In this document: piece by piece, positions 1 to 40,034 of the stretch
How the letters are laid out: every line of letters begins with the position of its first letter
How positions within the stretch are numbered: the first letter of the stretch is position 1
Origin: Candidatus Rifleibacteriota bacterium
GTDB taxonomy: Bacteria > Muiribacteriota > Ozemobacteria > Ozemobacterales > Ozemobacteraceae
Length of the DNA stretch: 59,276 nucleotides
Assembly: GCA_012517355.1 (NCBI GenBank)
Contig: JAAYVD010000169.1
Span: forward strand, 1-59,276
Reading direction: 5' to 3'
Position numbers and translations under genes: made by a program
The notes under the pieces: model-generated
Database searches by the model: none
What the model saw: the letters and a program-made list of their open reading frames with translations, nothing else
Told to the model about the DNA's origin: nothing

Positions 1-1851
1 CCCGCACCCGCGGGGATAGACCTTTCGCCGCCCCGCACCCGTAACCGAGACCGAGGGTTCCCCCGCACCCGCGGGGATAGACCCTCCCTGGGGCCGGTTC
101 AACATCGGACTTGTACGGTTCCCCCGCACCCGCGGGGATAGACCGGGGGTGGTTCCCGGCCAGCACCGGGCTCCGCAGGTTCCCCCGCACCCGCGGGGAT
201 AGACCCGCGGAAACGGGAGGGCAATCCCGCAGATCCGCGGTTCCCCCGCACCCGCGGGGATAGACCGTATTTCGGTGTCCACGTCAACGCGAACAAGCTG
301 GTTCCCCCGCACCCGCGGGGATAGACCTCCATCCCGTCAGCCACCCCCATGCCCGCCAGTGGTTCCCCCGCACCCGCGGGGATAGACCCCGGGTGTTGCC
401 AGCCATCAGCCATCCTAAGACGGTTCCCCCGCACCCGCGGGGATAGACCCGTGTCCGACGATTCCGCGCAGACCCGCCGATGGGTTCCCCCGCACCCGCG
501 GGGATAGACCCGATCTCCAGGTTCTCCAGTATCACGCTGGGGGGGTTCCCCCGCACCCGCGGGGATAGACCTCCGCCGCCTTCGCATTCCCCCCGGCCTG
601 CGTCGGTTCCCCCGCACCCGCGGGGATAGACCCGACATGATCGAAACCATGCAGAGGATGAACGGGGTTCCCCCGCACCCGCGGGGATAGACCCCGCGGT
701 CCGGTATCTCTCGATCCACCCGGAATGGTTCCCCCGCACCCGCGGGGATAGACCCCAGCCCGCGCAGTTCCGCGAGGCGTTGTTTTGGGTTCCCCCGCAC
801 CCGCGGGGATAGACCCATGACGACCGCCGGAGGGCGTGGCCGTCTCAGGTTCCCCCGCACCCGCGGGGATAGACCCCTGACCCTGTCCCTCGTCTTCCTG
901 CTGGCCCTGGTTCCCCCGCACCCGCGGGGATAGACCTCACGGCGTGGGCCAGGGCCTCGCGGGTCATGCGGTTCCCCCGCACCCGCGGGGATAGACCTGT
1001 GAGCGGAGTAATTCCTGCCATCGCCCCGGCGGTTCCCCCGCACCCGCGGGGATAGACCCCTTTTTTCATCTCGCTATGAGCGGCATGGCACGGTTCCCCC
1101 GCACCCGCGGGGATAGACCCCTCATCCTTGAGGATGCGTAGCGTCTTGGGGTGGTTCCCCCGCACCCGCGGGGATAGACCCCTCGTTCTACGACCCGGCC
1201 GCCGCCCAGGATCGGTTCCCCCGCACCCGCGGGGATAGACCCCTATCGGGGTGAGCGGCACGGGCCCGGATCGCGGTTCCCCCGCACCCGCGGGGATAGA
1301 CCCCAGACCTTTCGGTCAGGAGGATTACATGGACAGGTTCCCCCGCACCCGCGGGGATAGACCCAGGGCCAGACCGTCGGGGGTCACCGGCCGGACGGTT
1401 CCCCCGCACCCGCGGGGATAGACCCGATGACCGCCGGTTCTTCGACCGGGTCCCCCGGGTTCCCCCGCACCCGCGGGGATAGACCCAGGCCTGCATCGCC
1501 TCCCTGGCGGCCCGCCTGGGTTCCCCCGCACCCGCGGGGATAGACCCTCTTCCTGGTCGGCCTTGATCTTCGCCTGGCGGGTTCCCCCGCACCCGCGGGG
1601 ATAGACCTTTGGTTACAGCCCGGCCGCCCTCACCGCCTCCGGTTCCCCCGCACCCGCGGGGATAGACCCGGTATCTGACCGTGGACCACCGCCAGACAGG
1701 CGGTTCCCCCGCACCCGCGGGGATAGACCCAGCATCACCGGTGCGATCTTCGGCCAGTCCGGGGTTCCCCCGCACCCGCGGGGATAGACCCCTTGTTTCC
1801 AGCGGCGACACTAAGGATGACGCGGTTCCCCCGCACCCGCAGGGATAGACG
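1..1851 (+). CRISPR. CRISPR array, type I-E-like, leader-distal part
   Basis: Thirty complete 28-base repeats plus one 22-base partial repeat at the window edge enclose 30 spacers. Starts run every 61 bases from 56 to 788 and again from 848 to 1824; only the spacer at 816-847 is 32 rather than 33 bases. The repeat opens GGTTCCCCC, has an inverted pair of CCCCGC and GCGGGG-type arms and closes GGGGATAGACC, closely resembling the E. coli type I-E repeat read in the same direction. The final repeat (1824-1851) has two changes (G to A at base 18, C to G at base 28), as expected at the leader-distal end. Transcription is therefore inferred to be rightward, with leader and cas genes to the left of base 1. 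No cas gene is present in the window. Confidence 0.97.
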
Positions 1852-28791: not shown

Positions 28792-29703
28792 ATGAAAGAG
28801 TGCGAGCGGTTCCGGAACTGGTGCCAGGAGCGACTGGACGGCACGCCTGCCCCGGCCGACGAAACGCTGGCCGGCCACCCGGCCGCCTGCCCGGACTGCC
28901 AGGCCTTCCAGGATTGCCTTGCCTTGGTGCATCGGTCGTTGCAGACCCACCTGCCCCAGGGGGACGGCCCCCCGTTGCCCCAGGGTCTTGCCCACCCGCC
29001 CGGCTCCAGGGCGTGGCCCTGGTTGATCGGGGGAATCGGAGGGGCCCTGCTCATCCTGGCCCTGGTGGCCAGTCTGTTGGGACGCCATTCCCCATCGCCC
29101 CCGGCCGCCCCCGCCACCTCCCCTGGGCCTGGGCAGGCAACCCCTTCCATCTTCTTCCTGCGCCAGGAATCCCCCGCCGTGTTCCTTCGCCAGGAAGACG
29201 CCGCCCCCGAGCGACCCGCCCCCTCGACCGGCGAATCACCCCTGGGGAACGGCTGCCTGATCCGGTGCGACGCCCATGGCAAGGCGCGCCTGACCACCAG
29301 GGACGGCTCGAGCCTCACGCTCGCCCCGTCCACCGAGCTCGCCGTTCAGGGAGAAGAGGTCCGGATGAAAGTGGGCGAGATCTGGGTGGCCATCCGGACC
29401 AAGGGCGGCCATTTCCGCGTATTCACCCCGACCGCCATCCTGGGCGTGCGGGGAACCCGATTCGGGGTGACCGTGGCCCTGGATGGATCCACCCGGGTCC
29501 GCTGCGAGGAAGGAACCGTCTGGGTCAAGGGGAACGCCGGCGCCGGGGAGCACCTGGTGCTGGCCGGCCACCAGATCGCGGTCGACCGTACCGGCCAATC
29601 CGGCACGCTCCAGGAGTGGTCACCAGACGATCAACCCCGCCGGACCCTCTCCGGCGAGGAATTCATGAAGAACCCCGTTCGAATTGATAAACCCCGCCGG
29701 TAA
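28792..29703 (+). CDS. FecR-type anti-sigma factor, 303 aa
   Basis: N-terminal zinc-binding anti-sigma motif H29-x3-C33-x2-C36, one membrane helix (about 75-97), a Pro/Ala linker, then a FecR domain (GNGCLIRCDAHGKARLTTRD, VFTPTAILGVRGTRFGV, region 150-280). This is the layout of membrane anti-sigma factors that hold an ECF sigma factor until an outside signal arrives. Its likely partner is the ECF sigma encoded at the other end of the same operon (32259). The tail LSGEEFMKNPVR matches the divergent FecR protein. The ATG lacks an ideally spaced ribosome site (GAGGAGGGGG is 14 bases away). Confidence 0.85.
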   Translation: MKECERFRNWCQERLDGTPAPADETLAGHPAACPDCQAFQDCLALVHRSLQTHLPQGDGPPLPQGLAHPPGSRAWPWLIGGIGGALLILALVASLLGRHSPSPPAAPATSPGPGQATPSIFFLRQESPAVFLRQEDAAPERPAPSTGESPLGNGCLIRCDAHGKARLTTRDGSSLTLAPSTELAVQGEEVRMKVGEIWVAIRTKGGHFRVFTPTAILGVRGTRFGVTVALDGSTRVRCEEGTVWVKGNAGAGEHLVLAGHQIAVDRTGQSGTLQEWSPDDQPRRTLSGEEFMKNPVRIDKPRR

Positions 29704-29740: not shown

Positions 29741-30166
29741 ATGAGAGAGGGCAGCGGGTTCAGCATCCTGGAGTTCGTCCTCGCCCTGGCCATTTTCGCC
29801 ATGGCGGTGTTGGCCTTCTCCCCGGTCTTCAGCCAGGGCATCTCCTTCACCAAGGACATCCGCGACTACTCCATCCTCACCAACCTGGGCGAGGAGCTCA
29901 TCCACAACTACCAGGTCCAGATCCAGGACAACATCGGTGGGCCTCCCATGAGTTTCTTCGAGGAAGACATCACCGAAATGGTCAAAAAGGACTTCCCCAA
30001 TCCTGTCTTCACCTCTTTCTCCAGGTTCCAGGTCCTGGGAACGGTCCGACCCTCCCTGTTGTGCGAGAACAACGGGTTCGAGATCATGGTCCGTATCATC
30101 TGGGAAACCACCGGCCGCCGACGGGAGTTCACCCTGTTTTCGGTCAAGGCCGCCCCCGAAGCATGA
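29741..30166 (+). CDS. Prepilin-type pseudopilin, 141 aa
   Basis: Very short leader MREGSG, then FSILEFVLALAIFAMAVLAF: Phe at +1, Glu at +5. GGGGGGAGGA lies directly before the ATG at 29741; a longer in-frame extension to 29684 has no ribosome site. GspI/PilV-like size. It overlaps the next pseudopilin by four bases (ATGA). Confidence 0.88.
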   Translation: MREGSGFSILEFVLALAIFAMAVLAFSPVFSQGISFTKDIRDYSILTNLGEELIHNYQVQIQDNIGGPPMSFFEEDITEMVKKDFPNPVFTSFSRFQVLGTVRPSLLCENNGFEIMVRIIWETTGRRREFTLFSVKAAPEA

Positions 30167-30639
30167 CCACGAGACGCCGCCCGGGGTTTTCCCTCCCCGA
30201 GATCCTCATCGGTCTCGCCCTGTTCGGCATCCTCCTGGTGGCCATGCGGGTCTTCTTCTTCTGGAACCGGTCGGCCATCAACTCGATGGAAAAAACCAAC
30301 CTCGCCGCCAAGCTCCGCAACTCCTCCATCATTCTCAACCGCTCCCTGGCCCTGGCCACCGAGTTCCTCTATCCCGCCACGATCGGCCCCGATTACGTTC
30401 ACCAGATCATTTTTCGCAATCGCGACAACCACATCGTCGGAATCTTCCTGAACGACAAGAACACCTTGTCCATGTACAACTACTCGACCGACGAGTTCCG
30501 TGACATCACCCCATTCACCATCGGTTTCAAAGGTAGACGGGTCAAACAGAACCTGATGGAATACCAGATCGACATCAAGAAAGACCAATTCCAGTTCTCC
30601 ATCCAGAACCAGTTGTCGACATGCAACACCCTGCCATGA
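30163..30639 (+). CDS. Prepilin-type pseudopilin, 158 aa
   Basis: Leader MTTRRRPG, then FSLPEILIGLALFGILLVAM with Phe +1 and Glu +5. The globular part carries DNHIVGIFLNDKNTLSMYNY and a polar C-terminus. Start overlaps the preceding stop (ATGA) and its own stop overlaps the next start (ATGA), so all three are translated together. Confidence 0.88.
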   Translation: MTTRRRPGFSLPEILIGLALFGILLVAMRVFFFWNRSAINSMEKTNLAAKLRNSSIILNRSLALATEFLYPATIGPDYVHQIIFRNRDNHIVGIFLNDKNTLSMYNYSTDEFRDITPFTIGFKGRRVKQNLMEYQIDIKKDQFQFSIQNQLSTCNTLP

Positions 30640-32266
30640 GCCGGCCGGCACGATGTCCGCCATCCCCCCTGGCCGCCCCGGGTGGCGGCGGGAACCCCCC
30701 GATTCGGGCATGGCAAGGGGGGCATCCCAACGGCCATCCCATGACCCCGGGGGCTGGCCCCTCGCGGGGAGTGGCCCTGGTCGTCGTCCTCGTCCTTTCC
30801 CTCTGCCTGATGCTCTTCATCATCGGCTTCCAGACCTATTCCCAAAGCGAATTCCGCCACCTGGAACGGGTCATGACGCAGACCACCCTCGACTATCTCG
30901 TCCAGGCCGGTCTGAACATCGCGGAGGACAGGCTGCAGAAGGAACGCTGGTACGGCGACCAGCATACCCGGGGAAAGCTCGAGATCCCCGATCCCCCGAT
31001 CCCCCGATCCCCCAATCACGCATCGTCATCTACGCCGACGATTATGCCAACTCCGAGCGGCGGGCCATCGGGGAATACGAGTATTACATGCTCGACCACA
31101 TCAAGGTCTTCGTCCAGGCCACCTACCGTGGGCTGAACGCCTACGCCTACGGCAAGTACGTCATCTCCCCCGAGCCCACCTTCCTCGGAAAGTCGACGGA
31201 AGGGGTCGACTACGGGTTCCGCAGCCTCGATCCCTGCGCCCGCACCTTCCGCAAGATGGTGAACGTCCGCATCATCCGCGAAGACGAACTGGCGGCCGTC
31301 CCCGGCTTCTCCAGCATCGACGACCTGAACAGCCGCCAGGCCCTGGCCGAACACCTGCGCACCGATCTGACCGCCTTCGCCACCATGTACGGCCGGAACT
31401 TCCGCCTGTCCCAGAGTCTCCAGGACCGCTTCGCCGGCACCCAGGACACCTATTCCTGGCCGGCGTTCAAGCAGCTCATCGCCGGACTCGATACCGCACC
31501 CCCACCGGCCATGACCCACAACCAGCTCATGAACCAGTTCATCCTCGAGAACATGAAGGAGTTCTTCATGACCACCTCCTGGGATGTCCTGCCCGCGCAG
31601 AAGGCGCAGGGCCTCAACGAGGTGACCATCGAGCTGGGGCACTTCTCCCCCAAGCGGGCCTCCAATGACAGCGACCAGGCCATCGCCGTCGTCTTCGGAG
31701 GCGGACATCCCATCAAGCTGGCGGAAGGCCGTGACTACTGGCGGGAAATCCTGCCTTCCGGGGGAACGTCCGCCTTCGCCCGCTTCCTCCAGTTGCGGGG
31801 GGTGAACGGATATCCCGACAAGCCGCCCCGACAGCTGCAGGACGAACTGTGCAAGACGGTCGTCGAATACCGGTACGGCTTCAAGTGGCGGGCCTACGGG
31901 CTGATCCAGGTCCAGCCGGACGGCACCGTCATTCCCCTCCCCCCCCAGTTCGGGGGCGGACCGGCAATGTTCCTGTACTACCTGAACAATCGTGGCAACC
32001 CCACGGTTTTCGGCCCGGGCGGCGGGGTGGATTATGCCCCCTCCTATGGTCCCCGACCCACCACCGTCAACTACTACATCACCCGGGGCGGTACCATCAT
32101 GCCCCTGGCCTACGCCTTCAACATCTTCCTGAAATACGTCGACGAAACGATCTCGTACTCTCCCGACGAACTGGTCAAGGACGTGAACAACTGGCGGATC
32201 CCCATCCCGCCGACACCACCTCCGGATACGGGGACCGCGCCGGATTGGGGCGGGGTCGATGGCTGA
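30636..32266 (+). CDS. GspK/PilX-like pilus protein with frameshift in an octamer tract
   Basis: One gene split between two frames. The first frame (30636-31136, ATG overlapping the previous stop) encodes a long leader partly made of dispersed repeat copy G, then GVALVVVLVLSLCLMLFIIG, then YLVQAGLNIAEDRLQKERWY, the same pattern as the leftward paralogue at 18451. The rest of the protein (VIYADDYANSERRAIGEYEY, YVISPEPTFLGKSTEGV, to GVDG at 32266) is in the other frame. The switch falls in the 8-base tandem tract at 30983-31013: removing one unit, or adding two, restores one frame of about 540 residues. Either a phase-variable (now OFF) gene, a decayed gene, or an assembly error. Confidence 0.75.
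30641..30730 (-). repeat. Dispersed structured repeat, copy G, inside a pilus gene
   Basis: Diverged copy: minus strand reads CCCCCCTTGCCATGCCCGAA, then CGCCGCCACCCGGGGCGGC, ending GGCGGACATCGTGCCGGCCGG. It lies in the leader-coding region of the gene at 30636, opposite in orientation to it, exactly as copy F does in the gene at 21986. Confidence 0.6.
30983..31013 (+). repeat. Octamer tandem repeat (GATCCCC(C) x4)
   Basis: One 7-base unit GATCCCC followed by three perfect 8-base GATCCCCC units, inside a coding region. Eight is not a multiple of three, so slippage changes the reading frame. Confidence 0.93.
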
Positions 32267-32741
32267 CGGAGCGGGAACAGTCCCACCGTTTTCCGAGATC
32301 TTCGCGACCCACCGCAAGCTCGTCTGGTCGGTGGCCTGCTTCCACGTCGCCGCCCGCCAGGACCGCGAGGACCTGTTCCAGGAGATCTGGGAAGCCATCT
32401 TCCACAGCCTGCACCAGTTCGCCGGGCGATCCCGCCTTTCCACCTGGATCTACTCGGTCGCCCGCCACACTGCCCAGCGATACGTCACCCGCCACCGACC
32501 CCGGGGCCAACCCCCGCGGCCCGAGGGAGGGGCTCCTTCCCCCGAGGAGGTCGTCCTTTCCCGCGAAGCCCTGGCACATGCCATGGCCTCCCTCACCGAA
32601 CCCGAAGTCGAGATCATCTTCTTCCGGTACGTGGGTGGACACTCCTACGACGAACTGGCCGAGATCCTGAACATTCCCCTGTCCACCGTGAAAGCCCGCC
32701 TGTTCGAAGCCCGCCGGAAGATCCGCGACACCCGGAGCTGA
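32259..32741 (+). CDS. ECF sigma factor, 160 aa
   Basis: Extracytoplasmic-function RNA polymerase sigma factor with only regions 2 and 4. Region 2 includes DREDLFQEIWEAIFHSLHQF and RLSTWIYSVARHTAQRYV; region 4 is the helix-turn-helix SYDELAEILNIPLSTVKARL. Starts inside the end of the preceding pilus gene (8-base overlap), so it is translated as the last gene of the rightward pseudopilin operon. The FecR-type anti-sigma at the head of that operon (28792) is its likely partner, and it may direct its own operon. Confidence 0.92.
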   Translation: MADGAGTVPPFSEIFATHRKLVWSVACFHVAARQDREDLFQEIWEAIFHSLHQFAGRSRLSTWIYSVARHTAQRYVTRHRPRGQPPRPEGGAPSPEEVVLSREALAHAMASLTEPEVEIIFFRYVGGHSYDELAEILNIPLSTVKARLFEARRKIRDTRS

Positions 32742-32852: not shown

Positions 32853-34421
32853 TCAGGGGCCGGCCGGGGTCTCGACCGGGGTGCGGCCTTCCAGGGAGAA
32901 GGCCAGGCCGTGCCCAGCCGGCAACGACCCGGTGGCGGAGGCGGCCAGGTCGCACCAGGCCGCTTTTCCCGCAGCCACCCAGACGATGCTTTCGTCGTCC
33001 TCCACCCGCACCGTCAGGTGTGCCGACCCCTCCAGCTCGAGACGGACGGTAGGCAACCGCAGGACCAGGGGCCGCGTAGCGGGGGCGGCGGCCTCGATGG
33101 CTCCCTCGCCCTCGGGGAGGGCGACCACACCGGGGGAGAGGATCAATTCGCCGTCGCCGCGAAACGACATCCGCGGACCGTCGGCCAGGGTCAGTTCGAC
33201 CGGCCCCTCCCCCGAAACCGTGACCCGGTCACGGTTTCCGAGAGGGAACCCGCCGCCGGGAGAGACACCGCCCACCGGCGCCCCCCGCCGCCAGACCTGG
33301 CCGGGCCCCGTCACCTGGCCGCAGACGGGTGGGCCGAGGGGGCCCGCTTCCAGTGCGGTGATCGCGGCGGGTGAGGGGGTGGTCGGGGGGGTTGTCGATG
33401 GAGGAGTGGCGTGAGAGCCGGTTTCGGAGAGTTGGGGGGCCCCGGGGACACCGGCGGTCACGACCGGTGCCGGTTCGGCGGGTGGCGCCTGCTCAGAGGC
33501 GGAGGAAGCAGCCACGCTGGGGCCGGACGGGGCGGCCTCGGAGGGTGTCTGATCGGCAGGGAGAGCCGGGACGGTGGAGTCACGGGCGGAACCGGCCCCT
33601 GTCGCGATGGAGTCAGACGGGACCACGCCGGTGGCCGACGGCGTGGCGGCGGGAAGGGCGGAAAAACCGCTGTCGGAACGGGCTTTCGGGCCTGGCGGCA
33701 TTTGCCACTCCCAGAGCATTCCCCCGAGCACCCCGGCAAGGAAGAGGATTCCTCCGAGGAGCGCCAGGCGCGGAGCGGACCAGCGCCCGGGGCGGACCAC
33801 GGCCGTAGCGGGGGACGGGTTGCCCACTGGCAGGGAGACGGGATTCCCCCCGGCCGGGGCGGGCCCGCCCACGACCGTCGTTCCCAACGACAAACCCACC
33901 GATGGCTGGACGGCGGCGAGGGAACCAGGGATGGGCGAAAGGTCGGGAGGCGACACGGCGGCGGACGCCGATGCCACGGACGAAGAAACAGCGGGGGACG
34001 CACCACCTGGGTGGGAACCGGCGGCGGACGAACCCGCGGCCGGCGAACCAGGGGCGGGCAAACCGACATTTGGCGGCCCATCAGGAGGGACCCCGGCGGC
34101 GGACGTTCCTACGGTGGACGTTCCTTCGGCGGACGTTCCTACGGCTGGCGTACCGGGGGCTGGGCGCCCGGGGCTGGACGCCCCTGTGGTCGTTTGACAC
34201 GCGGCTGCCAGGTCGTCGAGGATGGCGGCTTTCAGGCGTTTCTCGGTGGCCGGGTCGGCACCGAGCCGCGACAAAAGGCCAACCACCGCCTCCTGGGCGG
34301 CCCGCAGCCGCCCGCAGGCCGGGCAGCCGCGCGCATGGTCGAGGCACCCCTTGGGAACAGAACGGCAGGTGGGGAAGGGCCCCCCCTGGTCGAGCCAGGC
34401 CCGATAGGACTTACAGTCCAT
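32853..34421 (-). CDS. Anti-sigma factor with FecR-like C-terminal domain, 522 aa
   Basis: N-terminal zinc motif H29-x3-C33-x2-C36, identical in position to that of the gene at 28792. A long Gly/Pro/Ser/Thr-rich linker (80-205), partly built from 15-base tandem units at 34105-34160 (GTSAEGTSTVGTSAAG), leads to one membrane helix (about 215-236). A second disordered stretch outside is followed by a FecR-like beta domain (GNRDRVTVSGEGPVELTLAD, about 400-500). Its start overlaps the end of the upstream ECF sigma gene by 11 bases, the classic sigma/anti-sigma pairing. Confidence 0.85.
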   Translation of the reverse strand: MDCKSYRAWLDQGGPFPTCRSVPKGCLDHARGCPACGRLRAAQEAVVGLLSRLGADPATEKRLKAAILDDLAAACQTTTGASSPGRPAPGTPAVGTSAEGTSTVGTSAAGVPPDGPPNVGLPAPGSPAAGSSAAGSHPGGASPAVSSSVASASAAVSPPDLSPIPGSLAAVQPSVGLSLGTTVVGGPAPAGGNPVSLPVGNPSPATAVVRPGRWSAPRLALLGGILFLAGVLGGMLWEWQMPPGPKARSDSGFSALPAATPSATGVVPSDSIATGAGSARDSTVPALPADQTPSEAAPSGPSVAASSASEQAPPAEPAPVVTAGVPGAPQLSETGSHATPPSTTPPTTPSPAAITALEAGPLGPPVCGQVTGPGQVWRRGAPVGGVSPGGGFPLGNRDRVTVSGEGPVELTLADGPRMSFRGDGELILSPGVVALPEGEGAIEAAAPATRPLVLRLPTVRLELEGSAHLTVRVEDDESIVWVAAGKAAWCDLAASATGSLPAGHGLAFSLEGRTPVETPAGP

Positions 34422-34947
34422 GCCGCAACAACTGGCTTCGCAACCGGCGCAGGCTGCGGGCCAGGACCTGGCCGAGCGGGCCGGCCTCGAACCCCGTGAC
34501 CCGGGCGGCTTCCTTCGTCGTCAGGCCGTTCACCAGGCGCAGGATCAGGATTTCCCGTTCGAGGGGGGGAAGGCTCTCCAGGTGGTCCCCGAGCGGCTTG
34601 TCAGGTTCCCGGACCCTGAGCTCGTCATCCTCCCCGTCCGGCGAAGCGGGCTCCAGATCCGGGACGGGCTTCCGGGCGAGGCCCAGCCGGTCGGCGCACA
34701 CCCGGTGGGTCAGAACCGCCAGCCAGACTCCCGGCTTCCCCCCGTCGTAGCCGGGAAGGGCTTTCCAGGCTTCCCGGAAGACGTCACGGGTCGCCTCCTC
34801 CGCTTCGGCAGCCGTCCCCAGCAACGCGTGGGCCTGCCGGAAAACGGCGGGGAAGGAGGCTTCGGCAAGGGCGGCGAACGCGGCCCGGGTGGCGGGAAGG
34901 TCGTCGGGAAGCCAGCGCAGCTCGAACCGGTTTCCGGGCCCGGACAT
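34411..34947 (-). CDS. ECF sigma factor, 178 aa
   Basis: Region 2 (FPAVFRQAHALLGTAAEAEE, DVFREAWKALPGYDG, WLAVLTHRVCADRLG) and region 4 (LPPLEREILILRLVNGLTTK, EAARVTGFEAGPLGQVLARS). An acidic spacer joins them. Co-translated with the anti-sigma factor at 32853 (11-base overlap). The start ATG is 34947; no good ribosome site. Targets unknown. The 268 bases upstream hold no assigned gene, only a GTGGGGGAA/TTCCCCCAC hairpin at 35152-35187. Confidence 0.9.
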   Translation of the reverse strand: MSGPGNRFELRWLPDDLPATRAAFAALAEASFPAVFRQAHALLGTAAEAEEATRDVFREAWKALPGYDGGKPGVWLAVLTHRVCADRLGLARKPVPDLEPASPDGEDDELRVREPDKPLGDHLESLPPLEREILILRLVNGLTTKEAARVTGFEAGPLGQVLARSLRRLRSQLLRHGL

Positions 34948-37361: not shown

Positions 37362-37390
37362 TTGAATTTCGGCGGCGGGGGGTCTATAGT
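37362..37390 (+). promoter_or_regulatory. Sigma-70-type promoter for glmS-like gene
   Basis: TTGAAT (37362-37367), exactly 17 bases, TATAGT (37385-37390), 73 bases before the ATG at 37464. It stands out in very GC-rich surroundings. No glmS ribozyme core was recognised in the leader. Confidence 0.7.
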
Positions 37391-37463
37391 TTCCCCCGGG
37401 GCAGGCGGGCCGCCTCCCCAGACCGAGCGGCAGAGCGGCCGTGGTTGCGGAAAGGAACACGAC

Positions 37464-40034
37464 ATGTGCGGCGTCATCGGACTCACCTACGAACACGACA
37501 AGCAGGACCTCGGGCAGGTGGCTTCCCGGCTGCTCCGGATGCTGGAATACCGCGGCTATGACTCGACCGGGGGTGTCGTCCAGGACAGCCAGGGCACCAT
37601 CACCCTGCGCAAGGACGTCGGTTCCCCCACCGAACTGACCGTCAGGCTGGGCATCGACCAGTTGCCCGGCCGCGTGTTCTGCGGCCAGGTGCGATGGGCC
37701 ACCTTCGGCGTGGTCAACCAGGCCAACGCCCAGCCGCACGAGATGCGGTGCAAGATCCACATCTACGGCGCCCACAACGGCAACATCACCAACTGCCTGC
37801 AGCTCAAACAGTGGCTGCTTGGCGAAGGACACGACGTCAAGAGCGACAACGACGGCGAGATGCTCATCCACACCGTCGAGCATTTCTTCGCCCAGGAGAT
37901 GCAGTACCAGGACGAGACCGACCACGCCGTTCGCGAGAAGGCCCTGAAGAACGCGGTGCTGAAGGCGGCAAAGAAGGTCATCGGGTCGTTCGCGGCCATC
38001 GTCGTCGATCCCGTCACCGAGCTGGTCGTGGCTATCAAGGCAGGCAGCAGCCTCTACATCGGCCAGGGCCACGACCCGACCGGCGGCGCGTTCATCGTCG
38101 CCAGTTCCGACCTGGCCTCGGTCCTGCAGATCACCCGCATCCTCATCCCGATCCGCGAGAAGGAGTTCGCCGTCTTCTCGCCGACCCGGTTCGCCAAGTA
38201 TGACCTCAAGACCGGCAAGAAGATCCGCCACGCGGTGCAGCGCAGCCTGCTGAAGGTCGAGGAGACCCGCCTGCAGCCCCCGTTCCACTTCTTCATGGAA
38301 CAGGAGATCCACCACCAGGTGCTGACCGCGCGGCGCCAGATCTCGCTGTTCACCGGCGGCAACCCGGTCACCAAGGCCCTGCGCCAGCACGAAAAGCAGC
38401 TCGGCGAAGTCTACGACAAGCTGAAGGAGGGCATCCGCAAGCTGGCCGACGTGACCGACACGAAGGACCTGCCCGCGCGCGTCGAGGCCTTCCTGCAGTC
38501 ACGCCCCGTGGCCCTGCTGCGCGACCTGGTCAAAGAGACCGCGCAGGACGGCTTCGAGACCCACCTCGACTCGTCGTATGCCAGCTTCCTCGAGGAGATG
38601 CGCGACCTGGCCGGGAAGAAGGACTATTCCCTGGTCCTGCTGCTCAAATACCTCGACGCCATCTTCGAGCTCGAGGACATCCACGACATCGAGCAGCGCG
38701 TGAAGAGGTTCACCGACATGGTGGTGAAGGCCCACCAGGGCGGCCATTCCATCTACATCCTGGCCTGCGGCACCTCCTACCACGCGGGCAAGACCGCCCC
38801 CATCTTCTTCAACGAGATCGCCGGCCTGTCCCTGATCCCGCTGCTGCCGGGCGAGTTCCGCGCCCAGTGCACCAACGCCCTGCGCGACGGCGACCTGGTC
38901 ATCGGCATCAGCCAGAGCGGCGAAACGAAGGATCTGATCGACGTCTTCAACTTCATCATCGCGTCGAAGAAGAAGGTCGGCCGCATCTGCATCCTCAACA
39001 ACACCAACTCGACCCTGGCCATCGAGAAGTCCGACCTGTTCGTTCCCCTCTTCTGCGGCCCCGAGATCGCCGTGCCGGCCACCAAGAGCTTCATGAACCA
39101 GCTGCTGCTGCTCTACATCCTGGCCCTGCAGGTGGCCCGACGGCTGGCGAAAGGGAAGGACCGCAACCCCGTGCTGCAGCACCTGGCGCGGCACGAGGCC
39201 AACCTCGACCGCATCCCCGAGCTGATCGACCGCACCCTGAAGACGACGCAGAAGGAGACCGACGAGATGGCCTCCTTCCTGTTCCTGGCCCCCAGCCTGC
39301 ACATCCTCGCCACCCGCATCCTGGGCATCGCCAAGGAGGGGGCCCTGAAGATCCGCGAGACCGTGCTGAACCACACCGAGGGATTCGAGGCCTCCGAGTT
39401 CAAGCACGGCCCCAACACCATCCTCGGGATCAACACCATCTTCGGCCTCGACAACGTGCGCGCGGTGCTGGCCACCTTCGGCCAGTCGATGCAGGCCGCC
39501 ATCGACAGTCCCGAGGGGAAGCAGCTCGACGCGCGCGGCCTCAACCGCCTGTTCCAGTCGGTCGCCGATTACGCCTTCCGCGACCAGCCGCCCCGGTTCC
39601 TCAGCGACCACGAGAAGGTGCTGTTCGACCGGGTGTTCGCCGATTTCAACTTCTTCGAGAGCATGTACGCCAACTACCCGCTGATCTTCATCGCCTGCCC
39701 CAACGAGACCGACATCAACCTCACCATCTCGCAGGTGAACACCCACAAGATCCGCGGAGCCCACGTCTTCATCATCGCCGAGGACAACGACCTGCTGCGC
39801 GCCGCCGTCTCGGTGCCGCCCGCCAACGGCTACGCCTACCGCCACGGCTACGTGACGCTGCCGCGCACCGACGAACTGTTGCTGCCCATCTTCTCGATCA
39901 CGACCGTGCTGCAGGTGCTGGCCCTCAAGATGAGCCAGCGCAAGATGGAATTCCTCGACCGCCTTGAGATCAGGAACCACGGCGTCCACCCCGACGTCCC
40001 CAAGAACGTCAGCAAGTCGATCACCGTCGACTGA
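37464..40034 (+). CDS. glmS: GlmS-like glutamine:fructose-6-phosphate aminotransferase, enlarged (856 aa)
   Basis: Makes glucosamine-6-phosphate for peptidoglycan and lipopolysaccharide. The class II glutamine amidotransferase nucleophile Cys2 is in place (MCGVIGL), with EYRGYDSTG. Two SIS sugar-isomerase domains follow: YILACGTSYHAG (about residue 432) with GISQSGETKD, and LGIAKEGALKIRETVLNHTE with FKHGPN. The end NVSKSITVD matches the GlmS C-terminal signature. At 856 residues it is about 250 longer than usual: extra sequence lies between the amidotransferase and first SIS domain (about 300-430) and within the second SIS domain (about 670-740). AAAGGA sits 7 bases before the ATG. It could be a GlmS paralogue with another sugar acceptor. 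Confidence 0.85.
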   Translation: MCGVIGLTYEHDKQDLGQVASRLLRMLEYRGYDSTGGVVQDSQGTITLRKDVGSPTELTVRLGIDQLPGRVFCGQVRWATFGVVNQANAQPHEMRCKIHIYGAHNGNITNCLQLKQWLLGEGHDVKSDNDGEMLIHTVEHFFAQEMQYQDETDHAVREKALKNAVLKAAKKVIGSFAAIVVDPVTELVVAIKAGSSLYIGQGHDPTGGAFIVASSDLASVLQITRILIPIREKEFAVFSPTRFAKYDLKTGKKIRHAVQRSLLKVEETRLQPPFHFFMEQEIHHQVLTARRQISLFTGGNPVTKALRQHEKQLGEVYDKLKEGIRKLADVTDTKDLPARVEAFLQSRPVALLRDLVKETAQDGFETHLDSSYASFLEEMRDLAGKKDYSLVLLLKYLDAIFELEDIHDIEQRVKRFTDMVVKAHQGGHSIYILACGTSYHAGKTAPIFFNEIAGLSLIPLLPGEFRAQCTNALRDGDLVIGISQSGETKDLIDVFNFIIASKKKVGRICILNNTNSTLAIEKSDLFVPLFCGPEIAVPATKSFMNQLLLLYILALQVARRLAKGKDRNPVLQHLARHEANLDRIPELIDRTLKTTQKETDEMASFLFLAPSLHILATRILGIAKEGALKIRETVLNHTEGFEASEFKHGPNTILGINTIFGLDNVRAVLATFGQSMQAAIDSPEGKQLDARGLNRLFQSVADYAFRDQPPRFLSDHEKVLFDRVFADFNFFESMYANYPLIFIACPNETDINLTISQVNTHKIRGAHVFIIAEDNDLLRAAVSVPPANGYAYRHGYVTLPRTDELLLPIFSITTVLQVLALKMSQRKMEFLDRLEIRNHGVHPDVPKNVSKSITVD

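What the first reader, a model, noticed from the sequence alone, without database searches (positions are those of the whole stretch)
30983..31013. Octamer tract that could switch a pilus protein on and off
Three perfect GATCCCCC units plus one 7-base unit sit exactly where the GspK/PilX-like gene changes frame. As sequenced the frame is broken; loss of one unit, or gain of two, restores a single product of about 540 residues that matches the leftward paralogue (YVISPEP motif). That is the signature of a phase-variable contingency locus at the pilus surface.
Basis: seen in the sequence. Interest (0 to 1): 0.72.

Follow-up and report, generated by a model that had tools for sequence, protein, structure and literature searches.

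The report
Octamer repeat breaks pilus-tip gene
In an uncultured bacterium, a short stretch of repeated eight-letter DNA has knocked a pilus-tip-like gene out of reading frame; this could be an on/off switch, but with so few repeats and no second strain to compare it looks more like a recent, possibly reversible, accident.

Summary
The tract is real: a 7-base GATCCCC then three perfect GATCCCCC units (30983-31013), exactly where a GspK-like minor pseudopilin gene changes frame. Exact arrays of this kind (period 7-12, not a multiple of 3, at least 3 copies) average 0.005 per shuffled window. The octamer pair occurs nowhere else in the genome and in none of 89 other genomes. A coding-potential scan puts the frame change at 31004. 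Six intact homologues (two in the same genome, four in other genomes) are single ORFs of 498-543 aa without the tract. Against the two closest, the window linker is 5 bases longer.

Best reading: slippage in a length-tolerant, proline-rich linker put this gene out of frame, probably recently, since the rest is undamaged. A unit-number change could move it back, so it works like a phase-variable locus in principle. With three perfect units, no conservation and no strain data, an evolved contingency locus is possible but unproven. The 'leftward paralogue (YVISPEP)' was not found; the full paralogues lie on other contigs. The organism belongs to Candidatus Riflebacteria. Extra: the gene's stop overlaps the start of an ECF sigma factor, so the break might also affect a regulator.

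The parts
30983..31013 (+). Octamer tract: one 7-base GATCCCC and three perfect GATCCCCC units, followed by AATC; the repeat is stop-free in all six frames
30741..31136 (+). 5' half of the GspK-like gene: pilin-type stem (RGVALVVVLVL...), reads through the tract in its own frame and stops at 31134-31136 (131 codons)
   Evidence: NCBIfam T2SS_GspK NF037980 E=1.1e-4, below its cut-off; 62% identical to the intact paralogue over 73 aa
31016..32266 (+). 3' half of the GspK-like gene in another frame: 416 codons and stop, no internal damage
   Evidence: (44-45% identical to intact homologues in G001 and on own contig C102)
29741..30166 (+). Minor pilin/pseudopilin, GspI/PilV-like, intact
   Evidence: NCBIfam TIGR02523 E=7.7e-4 and TIGR01707 E=8.6e-4, both below cut-off; homologue upstream of gspK in 6 of 6 loci with a full gspK homologue
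30163..30639 (+). Minor pilin/pseudopilin in the GspJ position, prepilin N-terminus, intact
   Evidence: TIGR02532 24.3 bits, above cut-off 16.3; PF07963 above cut-off; conserved neighbour in 6 of 6 such loci
28792..29703 (+). FecR-domain protein with an N-terminal HX3CX2C motif (HPAACPDC), likely anti-sigma factor
   Evidence: PF04773 E=1.2e-12; motif read from the translation, its name recalled; NCBIfam antisigmaE only E=0.14
32259..32741 (+). ECF sigma factor whose ATG overlaps the stop of the GspK-like gene by 8 bases (ATGGCTGA)
   Evidence: PF04542 and PF08281 above cut-off; sequence context; no such gene directly after gspK in the relatives

Best explanation
A GspK-like tip minor pseudopilin gene (last of a GspI-, GspJ-, GspK-like trio) has been put out of frame by a change in the length of a short tandem octamer tract in the linker between its pilin stem and its globular part. 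Most likely a slipped-strand tandem duplication of one octamer did it, on a proline/serine-coding stretch that already contained quasi-repeats. As assembled the gene is OFF: the ribosome passes through the tract and stops 40 codons later, giving a stem-only fragment. Because the tract is stop-free in every frame and the linker tolerates length change, further slippage could put the halves in one frame again, at a low rate. Shown: tract, frame break, intact homologues, no other damage. Inferred: that slippage caused it, that it is recent, that it is reversible.
For: Tract and break coincide; array not expected by chance. 6 of 6 full homologues examined are single ORFs with no tract. From the shared Glu codon to the shared Arg-Ile codons the window has 35 bases against 30 in both closest homologues, as expected from one extra octamer and one lost codon. 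The linker is the variable part of that region. Both halves keep coding signals, with third codon positions most changed, and for the 3' half the window gene's divergence is not out of line with its two operon neighbours. The genome has intact paralogues, so loss could be tolerated.
Against: No read data and no second strain, so direction and date of the change are inferred. A single-base change in one C run would give the same frame state, and the irregular 7-base first unit is compatible with that. The 5' half diverges relatively more than its neighbours (61-65% identity to C102 and G001, which are 84% identical to each other over 69 aa). The 5-base excess can be explained in other ways.
Confidence: 0.58

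Rival explanations
1. Evolved contingency locus: the octamer tract is kept because its slippage switches the tip minor pseudopilin ON and OFF in a population, giving pilus-tip bet-hedging (for example against phages or protists).
For: Non-triplet tract inside an otherwise intact surface-filament gene, above the 3-unit threshold used for octamers in H. influenzae (PMC2651432, passages); stop-free in all frames; only tract of its kind in 59 kb plus 454 kb of the same genome. Frameshift phase variation of a pilus accessory protein has a precedent in Neisseria pilC (PMC5953494, passages).
Against: Only three perfect units; tract absent from 6 of 6 homologues and from 89 of 90 genomes; no sign of a genome-wide set of such loci in the 454 kb sampled; no variants seen.
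Confidence: 0.2
2. Single-base change in one of the C runs, either a true mutation or a consensus error; the octamer tract is the setting but unit number did not change.
For: The first unit has four C instead of five, and a one-base length difference there is enough to explain the frame state.
Against: Runs are only 4-5 C; the window has 328 runs of 5 or more C or G, yet the scan found no other frame break in the window, so a homopolymer-error-prone assembly is unlikely. This version also leaves the linker longer than in both closest homologues.
Confidence: 0.14
3. Ordinary one-way pseudogene: the copy is redundant and is being lost; the tract is incidental to its fate.
For: Intact paralogues in the same genome, one with the same neighbour genes; the 5' half may be somewhat relaxed.
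Against: No second lesion in about 1.5 kb; neighbouring operon genes are intact.
Confidence: 0.06
4. Programmed -1 frameshift at CCC codons in the tract joins the two halves during translation.
For: Proline codons CCC preceded by C occur in the tract, and the RNA is somewhat structured (z = -1.81, 9 of 200 shuffles fold as well).
Against: The site is absent from all homologues; the fold is within the shuffle range; the slip known at CCC-C is +1 (recalled), the wrong direction.
Confidence: 0.02

Closest known systems
Simple-sequence-repeat contingency loci with translational phase variation (H. influenzae, Neisseria)
   Same: Non-triplet tandem repeat inside a coding region; unit-number change shifts the frame between ON and OFF; surface-related gene.
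   Different: Far fewer units than typical (for example hmw heptamers of 13-38 units; PMC2651432 passages); no demonstrated length variation; not conserved in relatives.
Neisseria pilC polyG/polyC frameshift switch
   Same: A tract inside the coding frame turns a pilus accessory protein ON or OFF (PMC5953494 passages).
   Different: Long homopolymer tract (9-20 G) in many strains; PilC is not a pilin; here a GspK-like minor pseudopilin and an octamer.
Reversible frameshift indels ('frame-shift scars') in M. tuberculosis
   Same: Low-complexity indels that silence a gene and may later be compensated (PMC8339072, abstract).
   Different: Shown there from 5977 isolates; here one genome only and no compensated scar seen.
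GspK/PilX minor pseudopilin, tip of the GspI-J-K complex
   Same: Stem resembles GspK and it follows two minor-pilin-type genes; GspK caps the complex (PMC7248040 passages).
   Different: No Pfam T2SSK match in 6 intact relatives, no PDB relative by profile; globular part is a family of its own.

Membership tests
SSR-mediated translational phase-variable (contingency) locus | Uninterrupted non-triplet tandem repeat at or above 3 units for octamers | tested here: met
   Three perfect GATCCCCC plus a 7-base partial unit; threshold from PMC2651432
SSR-mediated translational phase-variable (contingency) locus | Tract inside a gene so that unit number sets the reading frame | tested here: met
   Halves in different frames on either side of the tract; homologues show one continuous gene
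SSR-mediated translational phase-variable (contingency) locus | Length variation between clones or strains | not testable with these tools
   No second genome of the species; exact flank search of viral contigs gave 0; metagenome scans capped at 0
SSR-mediated translational phase-variable (contingency) locus | Hypermutability with reversible phenotype switching | not testable with these tools
   Needs culture or reads; by unit number it would fall in the proto-mutable or mutable class (PMC4235727 section 6; octamers are not listed there)
SSR-mediated translational phase-variable (contingency) locus | Tract retained in homologous genes or in a genome-wide set (supporting, not strictly defining) | tested here: not met
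   0 of 6 homologues have it; motif pair in 1 of 90 genomes, the own one; 0 other octamer arrays in 454 kb of own genome
GspK minor pseudopilin | GspK-type N-terminal stem | tested here: met
   NCBIfam NF037980 E=1.1e-4 over residues 9-70, partial and below the curated cut-off
GspK minor pseudopilin | T2SSK (PF03934) or full-length NCBIfam GspK match | tested here: not met
   0 of 6 intact homologues match Pfam; 0 of 2 tested match NCBIfam
GspK minor pseudopilin | Encoded after GspI- and GspJ-type genes | tested here: met
   Order in the window and in related loci; the GspJ assignment itself rests on position, its profile hit is weak

The most novel reading that the evidence does not exclude
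A true phase switch in an uncultured Riflebacteria species. Octamer slippage turns the tip minor pseudopilin ON or OFF and, because the gene's stop overlaps the start of an ECF sigma factor by 8 bases, also changes translation of that sigma factor, in an operon that begins with a likely FecR-type anti-sigma factor. One slippage event would then flip both a filament tip and a regulon.
Probability: 0.08. Interest if true: 0.72.

Novelty: new member of a known kind. Interest (0 to 1): 0.3.

Why it matters
Phase variation by repeat slippage is mostly documented in host-adapted pathogens; a confirmed case in an environmental candidate phylum would extend it to filament tips in free-living bacteria (perhaps against phage or grazers). 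If only a recent frameshift, it still shows how short repeats in tolerant linkers seed such loci, and it warns that single-genome 'contingency locus' calls need strain data.

Tried and rejected
Leftward YVISPEP paralogue: not in the window and no second relative on the contig. Dispersed repeat family: rejected, the octamer pair is at one place in the genome and in 0 of 89 other genomes. Error-prone assembly: the coding scan gave 12 raw candidate frame breaks in 513 kb (window plus 454 kb of own genome). I looked at 6 of the other 11; by eye all six look like ordinary gene-to-gene boundaries with the next start nearby; the remaining five were not inspected. Other non-triplet arrays of period 5 or more in the 454 kb: two (L038:10790-10813 and L042:11307-11339); one search showed neither at a clear break inside a gene. 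Programmed frameshift: weak and not conserved. Named relatives: the first genome-contig scan found none; the second found two Candidatus Riflebacteria contigs whose lengths equal those of G014:C101 and G003:C66, so they are probably the same records, not new evidence. Literature: no paper held both 'phase variation' and 'Riflebacteria'; a search pairing minor pseudopilin/GspK/PilX with 'phase variable' listed no paper (10 of 57 shown) containing the last term; searches gave only general comparators. Profile search of solved structures: 2 weak hits to DNA-binding proteins at E=0.53, disregarded. No structure was predicted, because the stated rule admits only window sequences and loci fetched by certain other tools.

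Full report
Observation. The window holds GATCCCC followed by three perfect GATCCCCC units at 30983-31013, which TRF reports as period 8, 4.0 copies. The upstream reading frame, carrying a pilin-type stem, runs through the tract and stops at 31134; the other frame runs from the tract to 32264 without a stop. GC by codon position changes register at the tract, and a codon-usage Viterbi scan, trained on 104,944 codons of this genome, puts the change at 31004, the only candidate in the window. In 200 dinucleotide shuffles of the window, exact arrays of period 7-12 (not a multiple of 3) with at least 3 copies averaged 0.005; shuffles do not keep coding periodicity, so the empirical figure also matters: 454 kb of the same genome held no other octamer array and two other non-triplet arrays of period 5 or more with at least 3 copies.

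Genome and relatives. The window is contig C72 of a 7.11 Mb, 184-contig genome. Two genomes of the same family have contigs with the same lengths (109,594 and 97,084 bases) as records named Candidatus Riflebacteria bacterium, so the organism belongs to that phylum (inference). A search of 95 genomes with the 3' half found matches in 13, the own genome included; most are short, partial matches. Full homologues examined: own contigs C102 and C71, and G001, G002, G003, G014. All six are single open frames (498-543 aa as cut); the G002 row was cut at an upstream non-ATG codon. None has the octamer tract; the octamer pair is in 1 of 90 genomes searched, the own one.

What the gene is. The 5' half resembles the stem of GspK (NCBIfam E=1.1e-4, below cut-off) and follows two minor-pilin-type genes, GspI/PilV-like and one in the GspJ position. 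In T2SS, GspK caps the GspI-J-K tip complex (PMC7248040, passages). None of the six intact homologues matches Pfam T2SSK and no solved relative was found, so the globular part is a divergent family; 'GspK-like' rests on stem and gene order. The own genome has eight places resembling the 5' half, this one included, so the function may be redundant. The C102 copy has the same minor-pilin neighbours.

How the frame was lost. From the shared Glu codon to the shared Arg-Ile codons, both closest homologues (C102, G001) have 30 bases and the window 35: an excess of 5, as one extra octamer and one lost codon would give. The homologues' linkers are proline/serine-rich in the two closest and vary in length, a plausible seed for slippage. 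A one-base change in a C run would also explain the frame. Both halves retain the pattern of coding change (third positions most different), and for the 3' half the divergence from C102 and G001 is not out of line with the neighbours; the 5' half is relatively more diverged. No other damage is visible, so the break looks recent (inference).

Switch or accident. In favour of a switch: a non-triplet tract, above the 3-unit threshold used for octamers in H. influenzae (PMC2651432, passages), free of stops in every frame, inside a filament gene. Against: the tract is short; [quoted passage not shown] a review classes short repeats as proto-mutable or mutable and requires phenotypic and molecular evidence for the hypermutable class (PMC4235727, section 6), though it lists three or more GACGA pentamers as hypermutable, which leaves room; the tract is not conserved; no length variants could be looked for. 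I therefore hold that it works like a phase-variable locus in principle, but do not file it as one.

A further point. The gene's stop overlaps the start of an ECF sigma factor (ATGGCTGA, 32259-32266). No such gene follows gspK directly in the relatives. Early termination in the OFF frame could reduce sigma translation through lost coupling; this is inference only, and the sigma gene has a G-rich stretch upstream that may serve for independent starts.

Literature. Read: passages of PMC2651432, PMC5953494 and PMC7248040; passages and section 6 of PMC4235727; abstract and outline of PMC8339072. Others were seen in search listings only. No paper in the library held both 'phase variation' and 'Riflebacteria'.

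Noticed in passing
window 56-1850: CRISPR-like arrays with repeat GGTTCCCCCGCACCCGCGGGGATAGACCC and about 61-base period; large ORFs that follow from 2295 were not examined.
   Followed up: no
window 32259-32266: ECF sigma start overlaps the stop of the GspK-like gene by 8 bases; no such gene directly follows gspK in the relatives.
   Followed up: partly
window 32853-34947, minus strand: A second sigma-like / HX3CX2C-containing pair: 178 aa ORF overlapping a 522 aa ORF, seen in the translations; names recalled.
   Followed up: no
   Followed up: no
L042:11307-11339 (own genome, contig C71): Decamer array GTGGTCATCT, 3.3 copies, next to the end of a long open frame.
   Followed up: partly
window 37362-40034: ORF containing a GlmS-like start (MCGVIGLTYEH...), recognised from recall only.
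   Followed up: no
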